Below are positions 40,578-50,022 of a stretch of 64,000 nt of DNA, in pieces. Location of the stretch: positions 1-64,000 of the forward strand of contig JAHJPG010000130.1 in assembly GCA_018819925.1 (NCBI GenBank), written 5' to 3'. The notes beneath the pieces were generated by a model, which was not told where the DNA came from, ran no database searches, and worked only from the letters and a program-made list of their open reading frames with translations. Origin of the DNA: Pseudomonadota bacterium (lineage in GTDB: Bacteria > Desulfobacterota > Desulfarculia > Desulfarculales > Desulfarculaceae). The first letter of the stretch is position 1, and every line of letters starts with the position of its first letter. A program made the position numbers and the translations under genes.

Positions 40578-41450
40578 TTAACCGATGCGCTTGCCGTCCT
40601 TGTCATAGTCGTACCAGCCCTTGCCGGTCTTGCGGCCCAGCTGGCCGGCCTCCACCTTGCGCCGCAGTATGGACGGCGGATAGAAGCGCTGGTCCTTTTC
40701 CTCTTCGTACACGTTGGTGTAGGCCATGAGCTGCACGTCCAGACCCACCAGGTCGGAAGTCTCCAGGGGGCCCATCTTGCGGCCAAAGGCCAGGCGGAAG
40801 CCGGTGTCTATGTCCTCGGGCGTGGCCACCTTCTGCTCCACCAGGCGATAGGCCTCCATGTTGGTGAGCATGTTGCAGCGGTTCAGGATGAAGCCGGCGA
40901 TGTCCGAGTCCACCCTGATGGGGTGCTTGCCGATGAAGCGGATGAACTCCATGCCCGCCTCCATGGTCTCCTCGCTGGTGGATATGCCCTTGATCACCTC
41001 CACAGCGTCCATCATGGGCACGGGGTTGAAGAAATGCAGGCCCAGCACGCGCTGGGGGCGCTGCGTGGCCCCGCCGATGGCGCTTATGGGGATGGCCGAG
41101 GTGTTGGAGGCCAAAAGGGTGTCCGGGCCCACGGTATTCTCCAGCCTGGCGAAGACCTCCTTTTTCACATCGAGGCTCTCGAAGACCGCCTCGATCACCA
41201 GGTCGGCATCGGCGCCCGGGGCGTAGTCCTCGCTGGCGGTGATGCGCGCCATCACCGTGTCCTTGTCGTCGGTGAGCTTGCCCTTGTCGGCCAATTTGCC
41301 CACCGACCAGGCGATGCTCTTAAGCGCCTTGTCCAGCATCTCCTGGGAAAGGTCGGTCATCACCACCTGCAATCCGCTCTGGGCGCAAACCTGCACGATG
41401 CCGGCGCCCATTGTGCCGCAGCCCACCACCATCACTTTCTTGATATTCAT
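40578..41450 (-). CDS. hbd: 3-hydroxybutyryl-CoA dehydrogenase type enzyme
   Basis: ATG at 41450 after GGAGGGTCTGTG; 290 residues. NAD site KVMVVGCGTMGAGIVQVCA, catalytic ASNTSAIPISAIG and LHFFNPVPMMDAVEVI, C-terminal GFILNRCNMLTNMEAYRLVE, and FGRKMGPLETSDLVGLD. This is the standard Hbd/PaaH class, acting on (S)-3-hydroxyacyl-CoA. Last gene of the operon that begins at 49799. Confidence 0.93.
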   Translation of the reverse strand: MNIKKVMVVGCGTMGAGIVQVCAQSGLQVVMTDLSQEMLDKALKSIAWSVGKLADKGKLTDDKDTVMARITASEDYAPGADADLVIEAVFESLDVKKEVFARLENTVGPDTLLASNTSAIPISAIGGATQRPQRVLGLHFFNPVPMMDAVEVIKGISTSEETMEAGMEFIRFIGKHPIRVDSDIAGFILNRCNMLTNMEAYRLVEQKVATPEDIDTGFRLAFGRKMGPLETSDLVGLDVQLMAYTNVYEEEKDQRFYPPSILRRKVEAGQLGRKTGKGWYDYDKDGKRIG

Positions 41451-41494
41451 CACAGACCCTCCGACGGTCTAAATTATGGTTTTGTCCAAAAGCC

Positions 41495-42682
41495 CTAGCC
41501 TTTTTCGTTGCCCAGGATGGCCACCGCGCTTATCTGGGGCGGGCCGCCAAAGGTGTGAGACAGGCCCAGGCGGGGGTTCTTCACCTGGCGCTCGGGATTG
41601 TCCACCTTCTGCTGCAACTGCTTGTATATCTCATAGGTCATGCGCAGGCCGCTGGCCCCGATGGGATGGCCGAAGCACTTGAGCCCGCCATCGATGTTGA
41701 CCGGCAGGCCGCCGCCTATCTCGAAGAAGCCGGACCTGATGTCCTCGATGGCCCCGCCGGGCTTGCTGAACCCGAAGTTCTCGTAGATGGCCAACTCGGT
41801 GATGGTGAAGCAGTCATGCACCTCGGCCAGGTCCAGCTCCTCGCGGGGGTTGGTGATACCGGCCATTTCATAGGCCTTCCTGGAGGAGTTCATCAAAGCC
41901 CCGAAGTGAATCCAATCGAAGTTTGGCCGCAGGTGAGGCATGGTGGAGTCCATGGCCACGCCCACGCCCTTCAGGTAGATGGGGTCGTCCCTGAAGTTCT
42001 TGGCCATGTCCGCCCGGGTGACGATGGCGCAAGCCGCGCCGTCGCTGTTGCCGCAGCAGTCGAACAGGCCCAGGGGCCAGGCGATCACCGGGGCGGAGAG
42101 CACCTTGTCCAAGGTCACCTTGTTATGAAAATGGGCCTTGGGAGTGCGGCTGCCGTTGTCGTGGTTCTTCACCGCGATGCGGCCGATAAGCTCCTTGCCT
42201 TGCTCGTTGGTCAGCCCGTAGGTGTCGAAATAGCGTTTGGCGATCAGGGCGAAGGAGCCGGGCGCGGTGCGCCGCGCCTCCAGGACCGGGTTCATGCCCC
42301 GGCCCATGCCCAGGCCGGGATAGCCGGTGTCCTTGAGCTTTTCCACTCCCAAGGCCATGACAACGTCATACATGCCGCTGGCCACGGCCATGCAGGCCTC
42401 GAACAGGGCGATGTGCCCGCTGGTGCACCAGTTTTCGTTGCGGATGATGGGGATGTCCCTGAGCTTGAGGGCATCGGCCGCCGCAGAGGAGCCGGTGCCG
42501 CCCATGGGCGCGTACACCGTGCTAAAAAAGCAGGCTTCGATGTCCTCGATGCCCACGCCAGCGTCCTTGAAGGCCTCGCTGGAGGCCTCGATGGCCAGAT
42601 CGCTCATGCCGGCGTCCCAGCGTTCGCCGAACTGGCTGCACCCCATGCCGATTATCGCTACTTTGTCCTTTATGCTACCCAT
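41495..42682 (-). CDS. SCP-x-type thiolase (acyl-CoA acetyltransferase)
   Basis: ATG at 42682 after GCGGGGAGATAATC; 395 residues. Nucleophilic C86 in NENWCTSGH, catalytic HDCFTITE and CFGHPIGASG. Belongs to the SCP-2/thiolase-like group that often needs a DUF35 partner protein; the gene before it encodes an HMG-CoA-synthase-like protein fused to DUF35, so the two probably form a complex. Role: thiolysis of a 3-ketoacyl-CoA. Confidence 0.88.
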   Translation of the reverse strand: MGSIKDKVAIIGMGCSQFGERWDAGMSDLAIEASSEAFKDAGVGIEDIEACFFSTVYAPMGGTGSSAAADALKLRDIPIIRNENWCTSGHIALFEACMAVASGMYDVVMALGVEKLKDTGYPGLGMGRGMNPVLEARRTAPGSFALIAKRYFDTYGLTNEQGKELIGRIAVKNHDNGSRTPKAHFHNKVTLDKVLSAPVIAWPLGLFDCCGNSDGAACAIVTRADMAKNFRDDPIYLKGVGVAMDSTMPHLRPNFDWIHFGALMNSSRKAYEMAGITNPREELDLAEVHDCFTITELAIYENFGFSKPGGAIEDIRSGFFEIGGGLPVNIDGGLKCFGHPIGASGLRMTYEIYKQLQQKVDNPERQVKNPRLGLSHTFGGPPQISAVAILGNEKG

Positions 42683-42695
42683 GATTATCTCCCCG

Positions 42696-44102
42696 CTACC
42701 TGACCAGCCGGCACTTCCAGAAGTAGTTGTGGAACCCACCCAAGTCGTGCATGCGGCGTAGGGTGAGGCGCACCGGCGTGCCCAGCTCCACCTGGGTGGG
42801 GTCGGCGTCGGTCATCAGACCGTAGAAACGGGCCCCGTTTTCCATCTGCACCACGGTCTGCACTACCACCGGGTCGTCGGGCCTTCCGGCCAGGTTATCC
42901 CGGCTGAAGGTGAAGACCTCTCCGGCCATGCCGCTCAGGCGCACCGTCTCAAACTGGTCCACGCTACGGCAGTTGTCGCAGATGCGCTGGATGGGAAAGG
43001 CCGCCGTGCCGCAGGCCTGGCATTTGCTGCCCCGGCAGCGCAACAGGGAATCGCGCTCCCGCCAGGTCACGGTAGCCGAGGGCACCAGGCGGAAAGGTTC
43101 GCCCGGCTGAGGCTCAACCAGCCCGTTGAAGCTGAGGAAGCGTGCATAGGAGTTGATGGCGCGGCGGTTCTCCAATTGCTGGGCCAGGCTCACCGCGGGC
43201 AGGACCGGCTGGGCCTTCACCTCGAACAACAGGGCCTGGGCCCCATCGCCGTAGGCGGCCAGCAATATCTTTTCGCCGGGCTGGGCCTGCTCCAGAACTG
43301 CGGCCAGCATCACCAATGGATGGGCCGCGCCGCAGAAGCCAACTTGCTCCAACATAGAGTCCACGGCCTGCCCGGCTTCGGTCAAGCCGGTCTTTTTCAA
43401 AATCCCCATGGCGGAACGGGGGTCCGGCGCGGGGATAATCGCCTTGTTGATATCCTCGGGTTTAAGCCCCATTTGTGACAGCAGGCCCTTGATGGCCTGG
43501 GCGGTCACCCGCAGATAGCCTTCGCCGGTGACGAAGCGCCCTTCCCAGGACTGCACGTAGGTGTCCTCCTGGGTGCGCCATACGTCAGTGATCTCATCAC
43601 TAACCGCATAGCCGCCCAAATAGGCCACCGGCGCATCGCCGCCACCCACCAAGACCGCCGCCCCGGCGTCGCCGAAGAGCTGTTCCTGGTCGGAGCGGGG
43701 ATAGGCCAGGCGTTTCTCTCCGCTGGCCACCAACACCTTGCCGCCATCGGCGGCCGTGTCCAGGGCCAGCTTTAACGCGCTTAGGCCCGAACGCAGGGAA
43801 TTGCCCAGGTCCAGGGTCTCCATGGCGCTGTCCAGGTCCAAAACCGTGGCCAGCATCGCCGCGCTGGCCTTTTCCTTGTAGGGAGCGGTGGTGGAGGCGA
43901 AATAGAGCCCCCGCACCGCCTCGCGTCCGGCGGCCTCCAAGCATGCCCCGGCGGCCTCGGCGGCCATGGTCAGGGAGTCCTCGTCGCTGCCCGCCACGCT
44001 GCGGCAACCGGCCAGGGAGCCCCGCTCCCAGGCCCCTCCAATGGCTTTGCGTTCCATCTTCAGATAGGGAATATGCGCAGCGGCTGAAAAAATGCCCGCC
44101 AT
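42696..44102 (-). CDS. HMG-CoA synthase-like protein fused to zinc-ribbon/OB-fold (DUF35)
   Basis: ATG after GGAGGATTATATA; 468 residues. Residues 1 to about 310 have the HMG-CoA synthase thiolase fold (VRGLYFASTTAPYKEKASA, GDAGAAVLVG, FCGAAHP with H261). Residues 345-465 are a zinc ribbon (C361, C364, C375, C378) and OB-fold. Where HMG-CoA synthase has its nucleophilic Cys (N-A-C-Y), this protein reads N101-S-L103-R, so the Cys is missing and synthase activity is doubtful. In archaea thiolase, HMG-CoA synthase and DUF35 form one complex; here two of the three are fused next to the thiolase gene. Likely a structural or substrate-channelling partner. Confidence 0.82.
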   Translation of the reverse strand: MAGIFSAAAHIPYLKMERKAIGGAWERGSLAGCRSVAGSDEDSLTMAAEAAGACLEAAGREAVRGLYFASTTAPYKEKASAAMLATVLDLDSAMETLDLGNSLRSGLSALKLALDTAADGGKVLVASGEKRLAYPRSDQEQLFGDAGAAVLVGGGDAPVAYLGGYAVSDEITDVWRTQEDTYVQSWEGRFVTGEGYLRVTAQAIKGLLSQMGLKPEDINKAIIPAPDPRSAMGILKKTGLTEAGQAVDSMLEQVGFCGAAHPLVMLAAVLEQAQPGEKILLAAYGDGAQALLFEVKAQPVLPAVSLAQQLENRRAINSYARFLSFNGLVEPQPGEPFRLVPSATVTWRERDSLLRCRGSKCQACGTAAFPIQRICDNCRSVDQFETVRLSGMAGEVFTFSRDNLAGRPDDPVVVQTVVQMENGARFYGLMTDADPTQVELGTPVRLTLRRMHDLGGFHNYFWKCRLVR

Positions 44103-44149: not shown

Positions 44150-45805
44150 CTAGATGGTTCTAACCGGCTGATACTCGCCGAACACCTCGCGCAACACACC
44201 GCAAATCTCGCCCAGGCTGGCATAGGCCTCCACCGCCGCGATTATAATCGGCATGAGATTGCCGTCTCCCTGGGCCGTCTGGCGAAGGGCCGCGAGAGCC
44301 TGATCCACCTGGTCCTGACTGCGCCGGCTCCTGAGGGCCTGCAACCGCTGTATCTGTTCCTGTTCGGCCTGGGGGTTGGCCTCGGCCAGGACATCTTTTT
44401 CCTCTTCATCGATGGCGTATTTGTTCACCCCCACCACCACCTGTTCGCCTCGCTCGACTTCCTTCTGAGTCTCGTAGGCGCGGCGCTCGATCTCCTTTTG
44501 CACGAACCCGTTCTCAATAGCCTCCACCGCGCCGCCCATTTCCTCTACCTCGGCCATCAATTCCTTAATGCGCGCGTAGAGCTGGTTGGTCAGAGCTTCC
44601 ATGTAATAGGAGCCGCCCATGGGGTCGATGGTGTCGGTGACCCCGGTTTCCTCGCGCAAAATCTGCTGGGTGCGCAGGCTGGTGCGCACCGACTCCTCGG
44701 TGGGCAGGCTGAGAGCCTCGTCATAGGAGCAGGCGGCGATGGACTGGGCCCCGGCCAGCACAGCGGCCAGGGTCTGGTAAGCCACCCGCACCACGTTGTT
44801 CAGGGGCTGCTGAGCGGTTAGGCTGGCCCCGCTGGTCTGGGTGTGAAAACGCAGCATGCACGAGCGCGGATCTTTGGCACCAAAGCGGTCCCGGAGCAGC
44901 TCGGCCCAGATGCGCCGGGCTGCCCGATATTTGGCCACTTCTTCGAAAATCTTGTTGTTGGTGTTGAAAATCCAGCTTATGCGCGGAGCGAACTTGTCGA
45001 TATCCAAACCCGCCTCGAGACCGGCCTCGATGTAGGCAATGGCGTTGCTGAAGGCAAAGGCTATTTCCTGCACCGCCGAGCAACCCGCCTCTCGCATATG
45101 GTAGCCGGCCACGTTGATGGTGTTGAAGCGCGGCACGTTCTTGCTGCAATATTCGAAGATGTCGGTGACCAGCCGGATGGACGGCTTGGGCGGGAAAATG
45201 TAGGTGCCCCGCACCGTGTACTCCTTGAGCACGTCGTTTTGCAGGGTGCCCCGCAGCACCTTGGGCTCCAGGCCCTGCTTCTTGCCGATGCTCACGTACA
45301 TGGCCAACATGATGGCCGAGGGCGCGTTGATGGTCATGGAGGTGGAGAGCTTGTCCAAGGGCAGGCCCTCGAAGATCACCTCCATGTCCTCCAGGGTGTC
45401 CACCGGCACCCCCACCTTGCCCACCTCGCCGGCGGACATGGGATGGTCCGAGTCATAGCCGATCTGGGTTGGCAGGTCAAAGGCCACGCTCAGGCCGGTC
45501 TGGCCCTGCTCCAGCAGATAGCGGAAGCGGGCGTTGGTGTCTTTGGGCGAGTCATAGCCCGAATACTGGCGCACCGTCCAGGGGCGGCCCAGGTACATGC
45601 TGGGGTAGACCCCGCGCGCAAAGGGATGTTCGCCGGGGAATCCCAACTGCTCCAGGTAGTCCTGCTCCGACACGTCGGCCGGGGTGTAGAGTTTTTCCAC
45701 CGGGTCGCCCCAGTCGGTGTGACGGGGAGCCACTTTGGCCAGACCGGGGTCGCTTTGGGCCCACTTGGTTTTTGCTTCTTTTATCTTGCTCTGGTCCATG
45801 GACAC
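44150..45805 (-). CDS. Methylmalonyl-CoA mutase, catalytic (large) subunit
   Basis: GTG at 45805 (or ATG at 45799) after GGGAGGGTGGAGCC; 551 residues, substrate-barrel part only, as in two-subunit mutases. TVRQYSGYD keeps the Tyr (Y89 in P. shermanii numbering) that marks methylmalonyl-CoA mutases, and [20 protein letters not shown] keeps Q197 and R207; isobutyryl-CoA and 2-hydroxyisobutyryl-CoA mutases differ there. [11 protein letters not shown] follows. Interconverts succinyl-CoA and (R)-methylmalonyl-CoA with the B12 subunit at 45825. A branched alkyl- or arylsuccinyl-CoA as substrate is not excluded. Confidence 0.9.
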
Positions 45806-45824
45806 GGCTCCACCCTCCCGGTTA

Positions 45825-46223
45825 TCAGCTCAGGGACACGTTGGCCCTGATGAACTCGGCGATTTGAGTCATGGTGGTCCCGGGCCCGAAGACTTCCTTG
45901 ACCCCCTGTTGTTTGAGGGTGGCGCGGTCCTGGGGGGGCACGATGCCCCCGGCCACCAGAAGGATATGCTGCGCGTCTTTTTCCCGCAGAAGTTGAGCCA
46001 CCAGGGGCAGGTGTTGGTTGTGAGCCCCGGACAGGGTGCTCAGGGCGATGACATCCACGTCTTCCTGCAGGGCGGTGGCGACGATGGCCGCTGGAGTCTG
46101 ACGCAGGCCGGTGTAAATCACCTCCATGCCCGCGTCCTTGAGGCCGGCGCAAACCACCTTTATGCCCCGGTCGTGGCCGTCCAGACCGGGCTTGGCCGCC
46201 AGGACCCGAATACGCTTACTCAT
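45825..46223 (-). CDS. Methylmalonyl-CoA mutase, B12-binding small subunit
   Basis: ATG at 46223 after AAAGGAGCGTGACAGTC; 132 residues. RVLAAKPGLDGHDRGIKVV carries the base-off DxHxxG cobalamin motif; IALSTLSGAHNQHLP and VAGGIVPPQD complete the fold. Lies 19 nt upstream of the large subunit. No MeaB-type chaperone gene is nearby. Confidence 0.93.
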   Translation of the reverse strand: MSKRIRVLAAKPGLDGHDRGIKVVCAGLKDAGMEVIYTGLRQTPAAIVATALQEDVDVIALSTLSGAHNQHLPLVAQLLREKDAQHILLVAGGIVPPQDRATLKQQGVKEVFGPGTTMTQIAEFIRANVSLS

Positions 46224-46256
46224 GACTGTCACGCTCCTTTTGCCGGCAAGCGCGGC

Positions 46257-47798
46257 TTACAGTGGTACGTTGCCGTGCTTGCGCCACGGTTTGGGTTCCT
46301 GCTTGTCCTCCAGGGCCTGGAGGGCCTGCACCAGGTAGCGCCGGGTGTCGCCGGGCAGGATCACCGCATCCACATGCAGCTTTTTGGCCACGTTGTAGGG
46401 GTTGGCGAACTTTTCCCGGTACTCCTCGATCTTGGCCTGGCGGGTGGCCTCGGGGTCGTCCGCCTTGGCTATGTCCTTGGCGTAGACGATATCCACCGCG
46501 CCCTCGGCCCCCATCACCGCCACCTCGGCCGAGGGCCAGGCCCAGACCTGGTCCGCGCCCAATTGCTTGGAGCACATGGCCTGGTAGGCTCCGCCATAGG
46601 CCTTGCGCAGGATGATGGTGATCTTGGGAACCGTGGCCTCGGAGTAGGCGTAGATCATCTTGGCCCCGTGGCGGATGATGCCGCTGTACTCATGCTTGAC
46701 CCCAGGCAGATAGCCCGGCACGTCCACCAGGTTCACCAGGGGGACGTTGAAGGCGTCGCAGGTGCGCACGAAACGGGCGGCCTTGTCCGAGGCGTCGCTG
46801 TCCAGGGCCCCGCCCAGGCAGCGCGACTGGTTGGCGATGATGCCCACCGAGCGCCCGGCCACCCGGCCGAAGCCGACCACTATATTGGGTGCGTACAGGG
46901 CCTTGACCTCCATGAAGTCTTCGCCATCCACCAGGCGGCGGATCACCTCGCGCACGTCGAAGAATTTTTTGCGATCTTCAGGGATGAACTGGTGAATCTC
47001 ATCGTCAAAGGGCGCTTCTTCCGAGGCGTCCAAGCGCGGAGGAACGTTCCTGGCGTTGCTGGGCAAGAAGGAGAGCAGGCGCTTTGCCTGCTCCAGACAA
47101 TCATTGTCGTCCTTGGCGGCCAGGTCGCAGTTGCCCGAAATCTTGGTGTGGATGCGTGGTCCGCCCAGCTTTTCCATGGTCACATCTTCGCCGGTGACCG
47201 ACATAATGACCTTGGGGCCGGTGATGAACATGTAGGAGGTCTTTTTGACCATGAACACGAAGTCGGTCATGGCCGGGGAATAGACCGCCCCACCGGCGCA
47301 GTTGCCCATGATCAACGAGATCTGGGGCACCACCCCGCTGGCGTTGACGTTGCGCTTGAAGATGAGGCCGTACCCGGCCAGGCCCTCGGCGCCTTCCTGA
47401 ACCCTGGCCCCGGCCGAATCGTTGATGCCCACGATGGGGGCCCCGGCCTTCACCGCCAGGTCCATTATGGTGCAGATCTTCTGGGAGTGCATGTCACCCA
47501 GGCTGCCGCCCATTACCGTGGCGTCCTGGGCAAAGGCGAAGACCGTGCGGCCGTCCACCTTGCCGTAGCCGGTCACCACGCCGTCGCCGGGCATATGCTG
47601 CTTTTCCAGCCCGAAGTCGCGGCAGGTGTGGTCGGTCAACAAGCCCACCTCGATGAAGGTGTCCTTGTCGAACAGGAAATCCAGGCGCTCCCGGGCGGTG
47701 AGCTTGCCTTTGGCGTGCTCCCGCTCGATGCGCTTGGCCCCGCCCCCCAGGCGGTGCTCATGGTTCTTCTGCTCAAGCTGCTTGATGAAATTATCCAT
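46257..47798 (-). CDS. Propionyl-CoA carboxylase-type carboxyltransferase (beta) subunit
   Basis: ATG at 47798 after AGGAGCAGAGACGGCA; 513 residues. Carboxyltransferase family: AKGKLTARERLDFLFD, DATVMGGSLG, INDSAGARVQEG, LVDVPGYLPGVKHEYSGIIRHGAK and KAYGGAYQAM. No biotin carboxylase or biotin carrier gene is found in the window, so those subunits are encoded elsewhere, or the protein belongs to a transcarboxylase or decarboxylase. Adjacent mutase genes make propionyl-CoA/methylmalonyl-CoA the natural substrate pair. Confidence 0.9.
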   Translation of the reverse strand: MDNFIKQLEQKNHEHRLGGGAKRIEREHAKGKLTARERLDFLFDKDTFIEVGLLTDHTCRDFGLEKQHMPGDGVVTGYGKVDGRTVFAFAQDATVMGGSLGDMHSQKICTIMDLAVKAGAPIVGINDSAGARVQEGAEGLAGYGLIFKRNVNASGVVPQISLIMGNCAGGAVYSPAMTDFVFMVKKTSYMFITGPKVIMSVTGEDVTMEKLGGPRIHTKISGNCDLAAKDDNDCLEQAKRLLSFLPSNARNVPPRLDASEEAPFDDEIHQFIPEDRKKFFDVREVIRRLVDGEDFMEVKALYAPNIVVGFGRVAGRSVGIIANQSRCLGGALDSDASDKAARFVRTCDAFNVPLVNLVDVPGYLPGVKHEYSGIIRHGAKMIYAYSEATVPKITIILRKAYGGAYQAMCSKQLGADQVWAWPSAEVAVMGAEGAVDIVYAKDIAKADDPEATRQAKIEEYREKFANPYNVAKKLHVDAVILPGDTRRYLVQALQALEDKQEPKPWRKHGNVPL

Positions 47799-47812
47799 TG
47801 CCGTCTCTGCTC

Positions 47813-48964
47813 CTAAAATCCGCACTCACGGGAAATGACGATGCGCTGAACCTCGGAGGTGCCCTCGGTCACCGTGTACAGGCGGCCGTCGCGCCAGTGA
47901 CGCTGGATGGGGTACTCCATCATGTAGCCGTAGCCGCCGTGGATCTGCATGCCGGTGTTGGTGATGTTCTGCAGCAACTCGGCGCAGAACAGCTTGACCA
48001 TGGAGGATTCCTTCTTCATGTTGGCCCCGGCCTCGTACAAGCGGGCCACCCGCCATACGTAGGTGCGCATCACGTCGATATAGGTGGCCATCTCAGCCAG
48101 CTTGAAGGAAGTGTTCTGGAACTTGATGATGGGCTTGCCGAACTGCACCCGCTGCTTGGCGTACTCCACACTGAGGTCGTAGGCCGCTTGGGCGGTGCCC
48201 AGGCAGCGGGCCCCGTAGGTGATGCGCCCGGAGATCAGAATGTCCTCCAGTTGCTGGAAGCCGCCGCACTCTTTGCCTCCGATGAGGTTTTCGGCGGGGA
48301 CCCGGCAGTCCTCGAACACCAGTTCGCCGGTCTCGGCGGCGTGGTTGCCAACCTTGTCCAACTTCTTGCTCACCGTGAAACCGGGGGTACCCTTGTCCAC
48401 CAGGAACAGGTTGATGCCCAGGCCCCGTTTGTCCGGCTGGGTGTAGGCGGCCACGATCACGTAGTCGCAGATGGGCGCGTTGGTGATGAACATCTTGGTG
48501 CCGTTGATGACGTAGTCGTCGCCGTCGCGCACCGCGCGGGTTTGTATGGAGGCGGCATCGGAGCCCACGTTGGGCTCGGTTAGGCCGAAGGCGGCGATTT
48601 TTTTGCCCTGGATGGCCGGGATCAGGTACTTCTGTTTTTGTTCGTCCGAACCGTGCAGAAAGATGGGCATGGTGCCCAGGCCGCTATGGGCCACGATGGC
48701 CCCGCAAAAGCCGGCGTTTATCCGGCAAACCTGCTCGATCATGATGCACTCGCTGAGCTTGTCAGCCCCGCCGCCGCCCAACTCTTCGGGGTAGCGGGGG
48801 CACAAAAAGCCCATCTCAGCCATCTTGGTGAACAGGGCCAGAGGAGTGTGGCCCGTCTCTTCAGCCTCGTCTACCATGGGGGCCAATACCTCGTCGGCGA
48901 AGTCGGCCATCATATCCTGGAATATTCTCTGCTCTTCGGTGAGCTCGGAGGTGTTGTATTGCAT
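47813..48964 (-). CDS. Acyl-CoA dehydrogenase
   Basis: ATG at 48964; 383 residues. FAD/substrate signatures AFGLTEPNVGSDAASIQT, INGTKMFITNA, QIHGGYGYMMEYPIQRHWRD, and catalytic Glu in TVTEGTSEVQR, as in short- and medium-chain enzymes. Oxidises an acyl-CoA to enoyl-CoA, with electrons going to ETF (not encoded here). In the operon after enoyl-CoA hydratase at 49014 and before the carboxyltransferase. Confidence 0.93.
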   Translation of the reverse strand: MQYNTSELTEEQRIFQDMMADFADEVLAPMVDEAEETGHTPLALFTKMAEMGFLCPRYPEELGGGGADKLSECIMIEQVCRINAGFCGAIVAHSGLGTMPIFLHGSDEQKQKYLIPAIQGKKIAAFGLTEPNVGSDAASIQTRAVRDGDDYVINGTKMFITNAPICDYVIVAAYTQPDKRGLGINLFLVDKGTPGFTVSKKLDKVGNHAAETGELVFEDCRVPAENLIGGKECGGFQQLEDILISGRITYGARCLGTAQAAYDLSVEYAKQRVQFGKPIIKFQNTSFKLAEMATYIDVMRTYVWRVARLYEAGANMKKESSMVKLFCAELLQNITNTGMQIHGGYGYMMEYPIQRHWRDGRLYTVTEGTSEVQRIVISRECGF

Positions 48965-49013
48965 CACTGCCTCACTTGGTTTTTAAATAGTCGTATGTCT
49001 GGGGCAAGGTGCT

Positions 49014-49799
49014 TTACTTGCCCTGGAAGTTCGGCTCACGTTTTTCAAACAGCGCCTTGATGCCCTCTTGGCGGTCCTCGCTGGTGAACAGGAGACACTC
49101 CACCATGGCCTCGTAGTCCAACCCGGCCCTGAGGCCGGTTTCCTGGGAGGCATTGATGGCCTTCTTGGCCCACTTAAGGGCCAAGCTGCTTTTGGCCGAG
49201 ATTTTTTTGGCCACGGCCATGACCTGCTCCTCAAGCTCATCCGCCGGGTAGACCTGGTTGACGATGCCCAACCGCAGGGCCTCGTCGGCCTTTATGAGCT
49301 CCCCGGTGAAGATGAGTTCCTTAGTCTTGGCCACCCCCACCAGGCGGGGCAGACGCTGGGTGCCCCCGCCCCCAGGCATGATGCCCAGGCGTATCTCGGG
49401 CAGACCCAGCAGGGAGCGGTCCGAGGCATAGCGCAGATCGCAGGCCAGAGCGAACTCCAGTCCGCCCCCGAGGCACAGGCCGTCGATCATGGCTATTACC
49501 GGCCGGTCGAGCCGCTCGAAGCGGGAGTAGAAGCCCTGGGCCAGGGTGTCCATGAAGTGCTCCATGTCCAGGGCGCTGTACTGGCTGAGTTCCTTGACGT
49601 CCGAGCCGGCCACGAAAGCCTTGTCCCCTGCCCCGGACACCACCAAGACCTTCACCCGCGGGTCTTGTTCCACCCGGGCCAGCACATCGGCCATTTCCAG
49701 GCGGGCGGCCCGGTTCAGTGCATTGCGCGCCTCCGGGCGGTTGATAATGAGGTGTCCGATGCCATCGTTAACCTCAAAAATGATGCTTTGGTACTCCAT
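49014..49799 (-). CDS. Enoyl-CoA hydratase/isomerase family protein
   Basis: ATG at 49799 after GGGAAGCAGACCA; 261 residues. Crotonase fold: NRPEARNALN, oxyanion loop KAFVAGSDVKEL, IDGLCLGGGLEFALACDLRYAS, LPEIRLGIMPGGGGTQRLPRLVG with the Glu of PEIRLG. Both catalytic glutamates can be matched (GGLE is a slight change from the usual GGGCE). First gene of the minus-strand operon down to 40578. It ends in EKREPNFQGK, the same C-terminus as the protein at 52648. Confidence 0.92.
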   Translation of the reverse strand: MEYQSIIFEVNDGIGHLIINRPEARNALNRAARLEMADVLARVEQDPRVKVLVVSGAGDKAFVAGSDVKELSQYSALDMEHFMDTLAQGFYSRFERLDRPVIAMIDGLCLGGGLEFALACDLRYASDRSLLGLPEIRLGIMPGGGGTQRLPRLVGVAKTKELIFTGELIKADEALRLGIVNQVYPADELEEQVMAVAKKISAKSSLALKWAKKAINASQETGLRAGLDYEAMVECLLFTSEDRQEGIKALFEKREPNFQGK

Positions 49800-50022
49800 T
49801 GGTCTGCTTCCCCGATATTGGCTAGTCAGGTTTCGGGCTTTGCCGTTCCCCCTGTTATTCATCCCAATGCTGCAAGGCCATGGTTTTTATTTATCATAAA
49901 TTTGATTTTATATTAAATTACATTAATCCGCCGCATTGGCAAGAAAAAATTAGGCCGTTTTTTGTTTTGCTATGGTTTTAGGTGGTTATCCACGCAGATG
50001 ACCGAGGGGAGCCCTGCCGTGG

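What the first reader, a model, noticed from the sequence alone, without database searches (positions are those of the whole stretch)
42696..44102. HMG-CoA-synthase-like/DUF35 fusion without its nucleophilic Cys
The position of the synthase Cys reads N101-S-L103-R, while the fold, H261 and the four zinc-ribbon cysteines remain. It lies next to an SCP-x thiolase, echoing the archaeal thiolase-HMG-CoA synthase-DUF35 complex. Perhaps it is a non-catalytic subunit that passes acyl-CoA to the thiolase.
Basis: partly seen in the sequence, partly recalled or inferred. Interest (0 to 1): 0.55.

Follow-up and report, generated by a model that had tools for sequence, protein, structure and literature searches.

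The report
Catalytically dead HMG-CoA-synthase scaffold for thiolase
This gene looks like HMG-CoA synthase but has lost the enzyme's whole catalytic centre, and it sits beside an intact thiolase in a fat-breakdown operon, so it is probably a structural partner that holds and serves that thiolase; the same partner pair is common in bacteria, including in steroid-hormone-degrading clusters where its role had puzzled authors.

Summary
Window 42696-44102 (minus) encodes a 468-aa HMG-CoA-synthase-like domain fused to a DUF35 zinc-ribbon/OB domain. Compared with the archaeal enzyme (6ESQ), Cys114 is Leu103, Glu82 is Thr71 and the catalytic-position His is Pro224. None of 158 readable family rows has Cys there. 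In the same columns, 15 of 15 stand-alone Chloroflexota homologs keep Glu/Cys/His, which validates the alignment. The fused proteins form one well-supported branch. A thiolase gene follows directly in 153 of 160 frames; its catalytic residues are intact in 142 of 142 pairs. Fused-protein genomes mostly lack HMG-CoA reductase (32 of 35). Surroundings are beta-oxidation genes; some members carry a C-terminal SDR dehydrogenase. A fused copy lies in an estradiol-type cluster of Novosphingobium ES2-1. PhlA of the PhlACB acyltransferase is a solved precedent. Most likely this is a non-catalytic scaffold/CoA-site subunit of a degradative thiolase complex. The complex itself, and any handing over of acyl-CoA, remain untested.

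The parts
42696..44102 (-). Fused pseudo-HMG-CoA-synthase/DUF35 protein, 468 aa
   Evidence: ORF and translation; profile matches; AF2 model pLDDT 83.9, pTM 0.88; best match 6esq_I Z 42.8
43113..44102 (-). HMGCS-like domain (residues about 1-330)
   Evidence: VIA-align range 1-330 on 6esq_I
43794..43796 (-). Leu103, column of the nucleophilic Cys114 of 6ESQ HMGCS
43890..43892 (-). Thr71, column of catalytic Glu82; Thr in 152 of 160 rows
43431..43433 (-). Pro224, column of the catalytic-position His (FHQPN)
42699..43070 (-). DUF35 (zinc ribbon plus OB fold) domain, residues about 345-468
   Evidence: matches to 6esq_E, 5m3k_B and 7pxp_A in the profile search; Pfam OB_ChsH2_C at 24 bits, under its 27.1 cut-off
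42969..43022 (-). Four zinc cysteines C361, C364, C375, C378
   Evidence: invariant in 24 rows, 99% in 160 rows
41495..42682 (-). SCP-x type thiolase, partner gene (ORF open to 42739; ATG at 42682 follows a GGGGAG box, start inferred)
   Evidence: (6esq_A E 1.2e-60)
42425..42427 (-). Thiolase nucleophile Cys (C105 counted from the 42739 ORF start)
41810..41818 (-). Thiolase HDC of the HDCF motif
41666..41668 (-). Thiolase His of the GHP motif
40578..41453 (-). 3-hydroxyacyl-CoA dehydrogenase next to the thiolase
   Evidence: Pfam 3HCDH_N and 3HCDH
44150..45805 (-). Methylmalonyl-CoA-mutase-type large subunit
   Evidence: Pfam MM_CoA_mutase, NCBIfam acid_CoA_mut_N
45825..46232 (-). B12-binding small subunit
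   Evidence: Pfam B12-binding
46257..47825 (-). Carboxyltransferase (mmdA/PccB-like)
47813..48967 (-). Acyl-CoA dehydrogenase
49014..49862 (-). Enoyl-CoA hydratase

Best explanation
It is a pseudoenzyme subunit. An HMG-CoA-synthase fold with its catalytic centre removed is fused to DUF35 and assembles with the adjacent SCP-x thiolase, much as PhlA+PhlB assemble with PhlC, or HMGCS+DUF35 with the archaeal thiolase. The thiolase alone does the chemistry: thiolytic cleavage of a 3-oxoacyl-CoA, the last step of a beta-oxidation round. The dead HMGCS fold and DUF35 build the complex and the shared CoA/pantetheine entry, probably also room for the acyl part. Shown: loss of all three catalytic positions family-wide, intact thiolase partner, tight gene pairing, beta-oxidation setting, and a fold closest to the known complex subunits. 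Inferred: the physical complex, the CoA-site role, and the substrate. For this operon a 2-methyl-branched or odd-chain 3-oxoacyl-CoA giving acetyl-CoA and propionyl-CoA is a guess from the neighbouring carboxyltransferase and mutase genes.
For: Active-site columns: L103/T71/P224 against C114/E82/His of 6ESQ; no Cys at column 103 in 158 readable rows of 160; 15 of 15 stand-alone Chloroflexota rows L201-L215 keep E/C/H in the same columns. Thiolase gene directly downstream: 151 of 160 frames by rule plus L011 and L109 on inspection. Thiolase Cys, HDC and GHP residues intact in 142 of 142 pairs. Distances of the two proteins correlate at r 0.833; swapping thiolases among paralogs of one genome gave at most 0.654 in 1000 draws. 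Named plasmids: in 6 of 6 regions read (of 32 records matched) the fused gene is followed by acetyl-CoA acetyltransferase; acyl-CoA dehydrogenase, hydratase/MaoC or SDR genes lie near in all 6, sparsely in L232 and L236. HMG-CoA reductase absent in 32 of 35 fused-protein genomes but present in 16 of 16 genomes with stand-alone HMGCS matches; DXP reductoisomerase the reverse, 33 of 35 and 0 of 16. SDR or SDR-SCP2 at the C-terminus in 2 of 2 scanned of 12 long frames. Structure: 6esq_I Z 42.8, CsATase PhlA 41.6, PpATase PhlA 40.2, MucABC 37.8. PhlA lacks Cys and Glu (Gly115, Cys83) and only PhlC residues act, yet all three subunits are needed for a functional enzyme (PMC6392133, passages; PMC12955522, passages).
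Against: No interaction was measured or modelled; co-linear inheritance of an operon would by itself give the distance correlation. The benzoylsuccinyl-CoA thiolase BbsAB works with DUF35 and no HMGCS-like part, so the HMGCS fold may be dispensable. Three genomes (G001, G058, G092) have both a fused protein and HMG-CoA reductase. Three frames (L051, L071, L130) have no directly adjacent thiolase. The dead pocket is not drifting freely: T71 is fixed in 152 of 160 rows and R/K104 in 159 of 160, which could mean an unknown activity.
Confidence: 0.7

Rival explanations
1. The HMGCS fold is a silent passenger: DUF35 alone serves the thiolase, as in BbsAB, and the HMGCS part only adds bulk or dimer contacts.
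For: DUF35 of the protein matches BbsA weakly; the benzoylsuccinyl-CoA thiolase is DUF35 plus thiolase (PMC12329534 and PMC10818641, passages).
Against: The HMGCS fold is kept at full length and as well conserved as DUF35 (mean 2.45 against 2.48 bits), with strongly fixed pocket residues T71 and R/K104.
Confidence: 0.15
2. The HMGCS fold has a new catalytic activity that does not need the old Cys/Glu/His, for example a lyase, hydrolase or acyl carrier step.
For: Fixed T71 and basic residue 104; authors of the estradiol work suggested other activities for their HMG-CoA synthase homolog (PMC7793797, passages).
Against: No new conserved Cys, and none of the three catalytic columns carries a shared acid or thiol; the solved PhlA precedent is non-catalytic.
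Confidence: 0.08
3. The complex is a PhlACB-like C-acyltransferase rather than a thiolase.
For: PhlA and MucABC are among the closest structures.
Against: The partner thiolase is closest to archaeal acetoacetyl-CoA thiolase (6esq_A 1.2e-60 against PhlC 2.4e-22), and the genes around are beta-oxidation genes.
Confidence: 0.07
4. It is a working HMG-CoA synthase of the mevalonate route with an unusual active site.
For: NCBIfam TIGR00748 and PRK04262 match with good E-values.
Against: Scores 110 and 146 bits, far under the cut-offs 353 and 244; Cys, Glu and His gone; no HMG-CoA reductase but a DXP reductoisomerase in the window's genome G000.
Confidence: 0.02

Closest known systems
PhlACB (PpATase, CsATase) acyltransferase, PDB 5M3K/9SKH
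   Same: HMGCS-like PhlA without catalytic Cys and Glu, DUF35 PhlB, thiolase-like PhlC with the only acting Cys; structural match Z 40-42
   Different: Three separate genes, C-acylation of phenols without added CoA; here HMGCS and DUF35 are fused and the setting is CoA-dependent beta-oxidation
[quoted passage not shown]
   Same: Same three folds; closest structure for the HMGCS part (Z 42.8) and closest solved sequence for the thiolase
   Different: HMGCS there is active (Cys114, Glu82) and serves mevalonate synthesis; here it is dead and the genome has no HMG-CoA reductase
Benzoylsuccinyl-CoA thiolase BbsAB, PDB 7PXP
   Same: DUF35 plus SCP-x-type thiolase acting at the end of an anaerobic beta-oxidation
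   Different: No HMGCS-like part; DUF35 there is a separate small subunit
HMG-CoA synthase homolog EGO55_13555 of the estradiol edc cluster, Novosphingobium tardaugens
   Same: Next to a thiolase, 3-hydroxyacyl-CoA dehydrogenase and acyl-CoA dehydrogenase; the matching gene in strain ES2-1 plasmid p3 is a fused protein with T/L/F in place of E/C/H
   Different: Aerobic steroid pathway; its sequence was not read here, equivalence rests on gene order
ChsH2-Ltp2 and Shy-Sal steroid aldolase complexes
   Same: DUF35 domain docks a thiolase-fold enzyme to the preceding enzyme of the pathway (PMC12329534, passages)
   Different: Aldolases with YDxF or YDxY instead of HDCF; a hydratase, not an HMGCS fold, is attached

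Membership tests
Archaeal-type HMG-CoA synthase (TIGR00748) | Model score over the curated cut-off | tested here: not met
   110.4 bits against 353.35
Archaeal-type HMG-CoA synthase (TIGR00748) | Nucleophilic Cys | tested here: not met
   Leu103; 0 of 158 readable family rows
Archaeal-type HMG-CoA synthase (TIGR00748) | Catalytic Glu and His | tested here: not met
   Thr71 and Pro224
Archaeal-type HMG-CoA synthase (TIGR00748) | Fold | tested here: met
   Z 42.8, rmsd 2.0 over 327 residues of 6esq_I
Archaeal-type HMG-CoA synthase (TIGR00748) | Mevalonate route in the genome (HMG-CoA reductase) | tested here: not met
   No PF00368 match in G000 at E 1e-10
DUF35 / ChsH2 C-terminal OB and zinc ribbon | Four-Cys zinc ribbon C-x2-C-x10-C-x2-C | tested here: met
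   C361, C364, C375, C378
DUF35 / ChsH2 C-terminal OB and zinc ribbon | Pfam OB_ChsH2_C over gathering score | tested here: inconclusive
   24 bits against 27.1 for this protein; 31.6 for homolog L060
Thiolase/HMGCS/DUF35 complex (6ESQ, PhlACB type) | All three components encoded together | tested here: met
   Fusion plus adjacent thiolase
Thiolase/HMGCS/DUF35 complex (6ESQ, PhlACB type) | Physical complex | not testable with these tools
   Only single chains could be folded
PhlA-type non-catalytic HMGCS-like subunit | Cys and Glu both missing | tested here: met
   L103 and T71; PhlA Gly115 and Cys83
PhlA-type non-catalytic HMGCS-like subunit | Groups with PhlA in a tree | tested here: not met
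   Fused proteins form their own side of a branch, SH-aLRT 100; PhlA and MucA fall outside
SCP-2/SCP-x thiolase (partner gene) | Cys nucleophile, HDCF, GHP | tested here: met
   142 of 142 partner genes incl. the window's
BbsAB benzoylsuccinyl-CoA thiolase | NCBIfam BbsA/BbsB over cut-off | tested here: not met
   21.3 against 250 and 158.6 against 750 bits

The most novel reading that the evidence does not exclude
The dead HMGCS fold is a substrate vault and docking hub: its emptied pocket, still lined by fixed Thr71 and a basic residue 104, holds the acyl or pantetheine part of the 3-oxoacyl-CoA, while the DUF35/C-terminal side docks the preceding dehydrogenase (literally fused as SDR or SDR-SCP2 in some members), so that the last two steps of beta-oxidation of bulky or branched acyl-CoAs are channelled. 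A condensing enzyme of biosynthesis would have been turned into a catabolic channelling platform across several phyla.
Probability: 0.25. Interest if true: 0.75.

Novelty: new variant of a known kind. Interest (0 to 1): 0.52.

Why it matters
Models and annotations tie these proteins to HMG-CoA synthase, which puts a biosynthetic mevalonate enzyme into catabolic operons where it makes no sense; the estradiol-degradation authors met exactly that puzzle (PMC7793797). Recognising a widespread dead-HMGCS/DUF35 partner of SCP-x thiolases corrects the annotation, would explain the puzzle, and offers many natural cases of a pseudoenzyme kept only to serve another enzyme. It also makes a clear test possible: does the thiolase need it, and for which substrates?

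Tried and rejected
Rejected: H261 as retained catalytic His (wrong column; 72 of 160 rows have His there). Rejected: another conserved Cys as nucleophile (only C54 above 50% in the HMGCS part). Tried and dropped: an idea that residues 171-197, poorly modelled in the monomer, are an unusually conserved interface; over 160 rows this stretch is below the domain mean. Tried and corrected: a first tree test rejected one fused branch because two incomplete rows, L198 (contig end) and L025:3548 (HMGCS and thiolase in one frame, DUF35 missing), had been labelled split; relabelled as fused after seeing the tree, the fused rows need one change, SH-aLRT 100. The frames over 800 aa were first taken for HMGCS-thiolase fusions; the two scanned are HMGCS-DUF35-SDR. 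The tree is unrooted, so whether Cys was lost once cannot be said; it needs one change of state. Four of the 16 stand-alone genomes used as controls (G511, G332, G309, G322) were not read at the active site. Literature searches for the family as such gave no paper that describes it; the library lacks most subscription journals.

Full report
What is there. Window 42696-44102 on the minus strand is an ATG-started frame of 468 aa behind an AGGAGG box. Residues 1-330 match HMG-CoA synthases and ketoacyl synthase III, residues 345-468 match DUF35 proteins. An AlphaFold2 model from 24 related rows has mean pLDDT 83.9 and pTM 0.88. Its closest solved structures are HMGCS of the archaeal thiolase/HMGCS/DUF35 complex (6esq_I, Z 42.8, rmsd 2.0 over 327 residues), PhlA of two PhlACB acyltransferases (Z 41.6 and 40.2) and MucABC (Z 37.8), ahead of the ordinary HMG-CoA synthases (Z 36.5 and lower).

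Catalytic residues. PMC6392133 (passages) names Cys114 and Glu82 for the archaeal HMGCS. Counting along the printed alignment these fall on Leu103 and Thr71; the His of the FHQPN motif falls on Pro224. That this His is catalytic is established knowledge of HMG-CoA synthases, recalled. In 160 aligned rows (window protein plus 159, mostly Desulfobacterota) column 103 holds L 99, V 17, T 12, I 10, Q 9, M 6, A 3, F 1, S 1, gap 2; no Cys. Column 71 is T in 152; column 224 has no His. Thr71 and a basic residue at 104 (159 of 160) are fixed, so the site is not simply decaying. No Cys of the HMGCS part is conserved above half of the rows except C54 at 79% on an N-terminal helix.

A natural control. 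Searches in Chloroflexota and Bacillota with the family profile brought stand-alone HMGCS genes with frames of 350-445 aa. 15 of 15 Chloroflexota rows (L201-L215) read GSESHPY, FACKAG and FHQPN in the same columns, that is Glu, Cys and His in place. Seven Bacillota loci (L224-L230; five kept in the tree) are split but Cys-less, with separate DUF35 and thiolase genes. All fused rows that cover the column lack Cys. In a tree of 104 rows the fused proteins form one side of a branch (SH-aLRT 100), the Cys-bearing stand-alone rows group with 6ESQ, and PhlA/MucA lie outside the fused group (two incomplete rows were relabelled after the first run).

Mevalonate or not. Of 56 genomes searched, HMG-CoA reductase (PF00368) is in 16 of 16 with stand-alone HMGCS matches (12 of these read at the active site), in 3 of 35 with fused proteins (G001, G058, G092) and 0 of 5 with split Cys-less proteins. 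DXP reductoisomerase is in 0 of 16, 33 of 35 and 5 of 5. The window's genome has the latter and not the former. So the fused protein is not part of a mevalonate route there.

Spread. A match at E 1e-20 or better was found in 92 of 297 genomes of the window's phylum, up to five per genome. In the Chloroflexota (65 of 251) most matches are the stand-alone type; in the Bacillota (14 of 249) nine genomes have the fused type.

The partner. In 158 loci, 160 frames hold the fused protein; 151 have a thiolase gene directly downstream by rule, two more (L011, L109) on inspection, one shares a frame with it (L025, probably a deletion or assembly fault), three end at the locus edge, and L051, L071 and L130 have none adjacent. 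In 142 pairs long enough to compare, the thiolase keeps Cys, His and Cys of HDCF, and His of GHP in 142 of 142. Aldolase relatives have a Tyr at the HDCF His (PMC12329534, passages), so this is a thiolase. Distance matrices of the two proteins agree (r 0.833); shuffling thiolases among paralogs within the 26 genomes with more than one pair gave at most 0.654 in 1000 draws. This shows that pairs stay together, which operon inheritance also explains; it is not proof of contact.

Setting. The window operon reads enoyl-CoA hydratase, acyl-CoA dehydrogenase, carboxyltransferase, B12-binding subunit, methylmalonyl-CoA-mutase-type subunit, fused protein, thiolase, 3-hydroxyacyl-CoA dehydrogenase, then a second such dehydrogenase and 2-oxoacid:ferredoxin oxidoreductase subunits. 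Of 23 loci L006-L028, 18 carry a hydratase, acyl-CoA dehydrogenase or 3-hydroxyacyl-CoA dehydrogenase similar to the window's (BLAST to window genes only, so a minimum). L012 has a mutase and MeaB; L023 a CoA-transferase; L021 nothing telling. Twelve of the 160 frames have 300 or more extra residues after DUF35; 2 of these 12 were scanned, both carry a short-chain dehydrogenase and one also an SCP2 domain. That puts a candidate for the step before thiolysis on the same chain. On plasmids 32 records match; 6 were read: the fused gene is followed by acetyl-CoA acetyltransferase in 6 of 6, column 103 is L, L, A, Q, R, Q, and the thiolase motifs are intact in 6 of 6; one (L235) has lost the zinc cysteines and keeps a His at column 224.

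A known puzzle. Novosphingobium sp. ES2-1 plasmid p3 has acyl-CoA dehydrogenase, SDR, fused protein, acetyl-CoA acetyltransferase, two hydratase-like genes, a small hypothetical gene, lipid-transfer protein, OB-fold protein and cytochrome P450 in a row. This matches the gene order that PMC7793797 (section 6 read, other passages) gives for the estradiol operon OpA of N. tardaugens, where EGO55_13555 is an HMG-CoA synthase homolog that the authors could not place because condensation makes no sense there. Deleting the whole operon stops growth on estrogens. By gene order, that gene is very likely a member of this family; its sequence was not read here.

How it works. The nearest tested precedent is PhlACB: all three subunits are needed for a functional enzyme, but only PhlC residues act, and a continuous cavity is lined by all three; C88S in PhlC kills activity. 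In the archaeal complex a shared CoA site lies between the subunits (PMC12329534 and PMC6392133, passages; the original paper was not held). By analogy the fused protein here should be a non-catalytic scaffold that completes the thiolase's CoA and substrate site. The claim that it passes acyl-CoA to the thiolase goes further than the evidence. The substrate in this operon is a guess.

Verdict. Observation confirmed and enlarged; interpretation partly supported; new variant of a known kind (a fused, catabolic, dead-HMGCS form of the thiolase/HMGCS/DUF35 complexes). Searches in the open library found no description of it.

Noticed in passing
L059-L070: Twelve homologs carry 300-430 residues after DUF35; the two scanned hold a short-chain dehydrogenase, one with an SCP2 domain, reminiscent of peroxisomal MFE-2 parts (the comparison is recalled).
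   Followed up: partly
L224-L230: Bacillota have an unfused, Cys-less HMGCS-like gene next to a thiolase and a separate DUF35 gene, in genomes without HMG-CoA reductase (5 of 5 tested); a third type beside the fused and the mevalonate forms.
   Followed up: partly
L022, L024, L027: Chloroflexota loci with two fused-protein/thiolase pairs in tandem.
   Followed up: no
L235:5980-7410: A plasmid-borne member (Sphingopyxis macrogoltabida) that has lost the four zinc cysteines too.
   Followed up: no
window 44150-47825: Mutase large and small subunits and a carboxyltransferase in the same operon, so the pathway probably makes or uses a methylmalonyl-type CoA ester.
   Followed up: partly
L231 (Novosphingobium sp. 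ES2-1 plasmid p3): An estradiol-type edc cluster on a plasmid typed as conjugative.
   Followed up: no
L025:3548-5221: HMGCS part and thiolase in one frame with DUF35 missing; likely a deletion or assembly fault.
   Followed up: no
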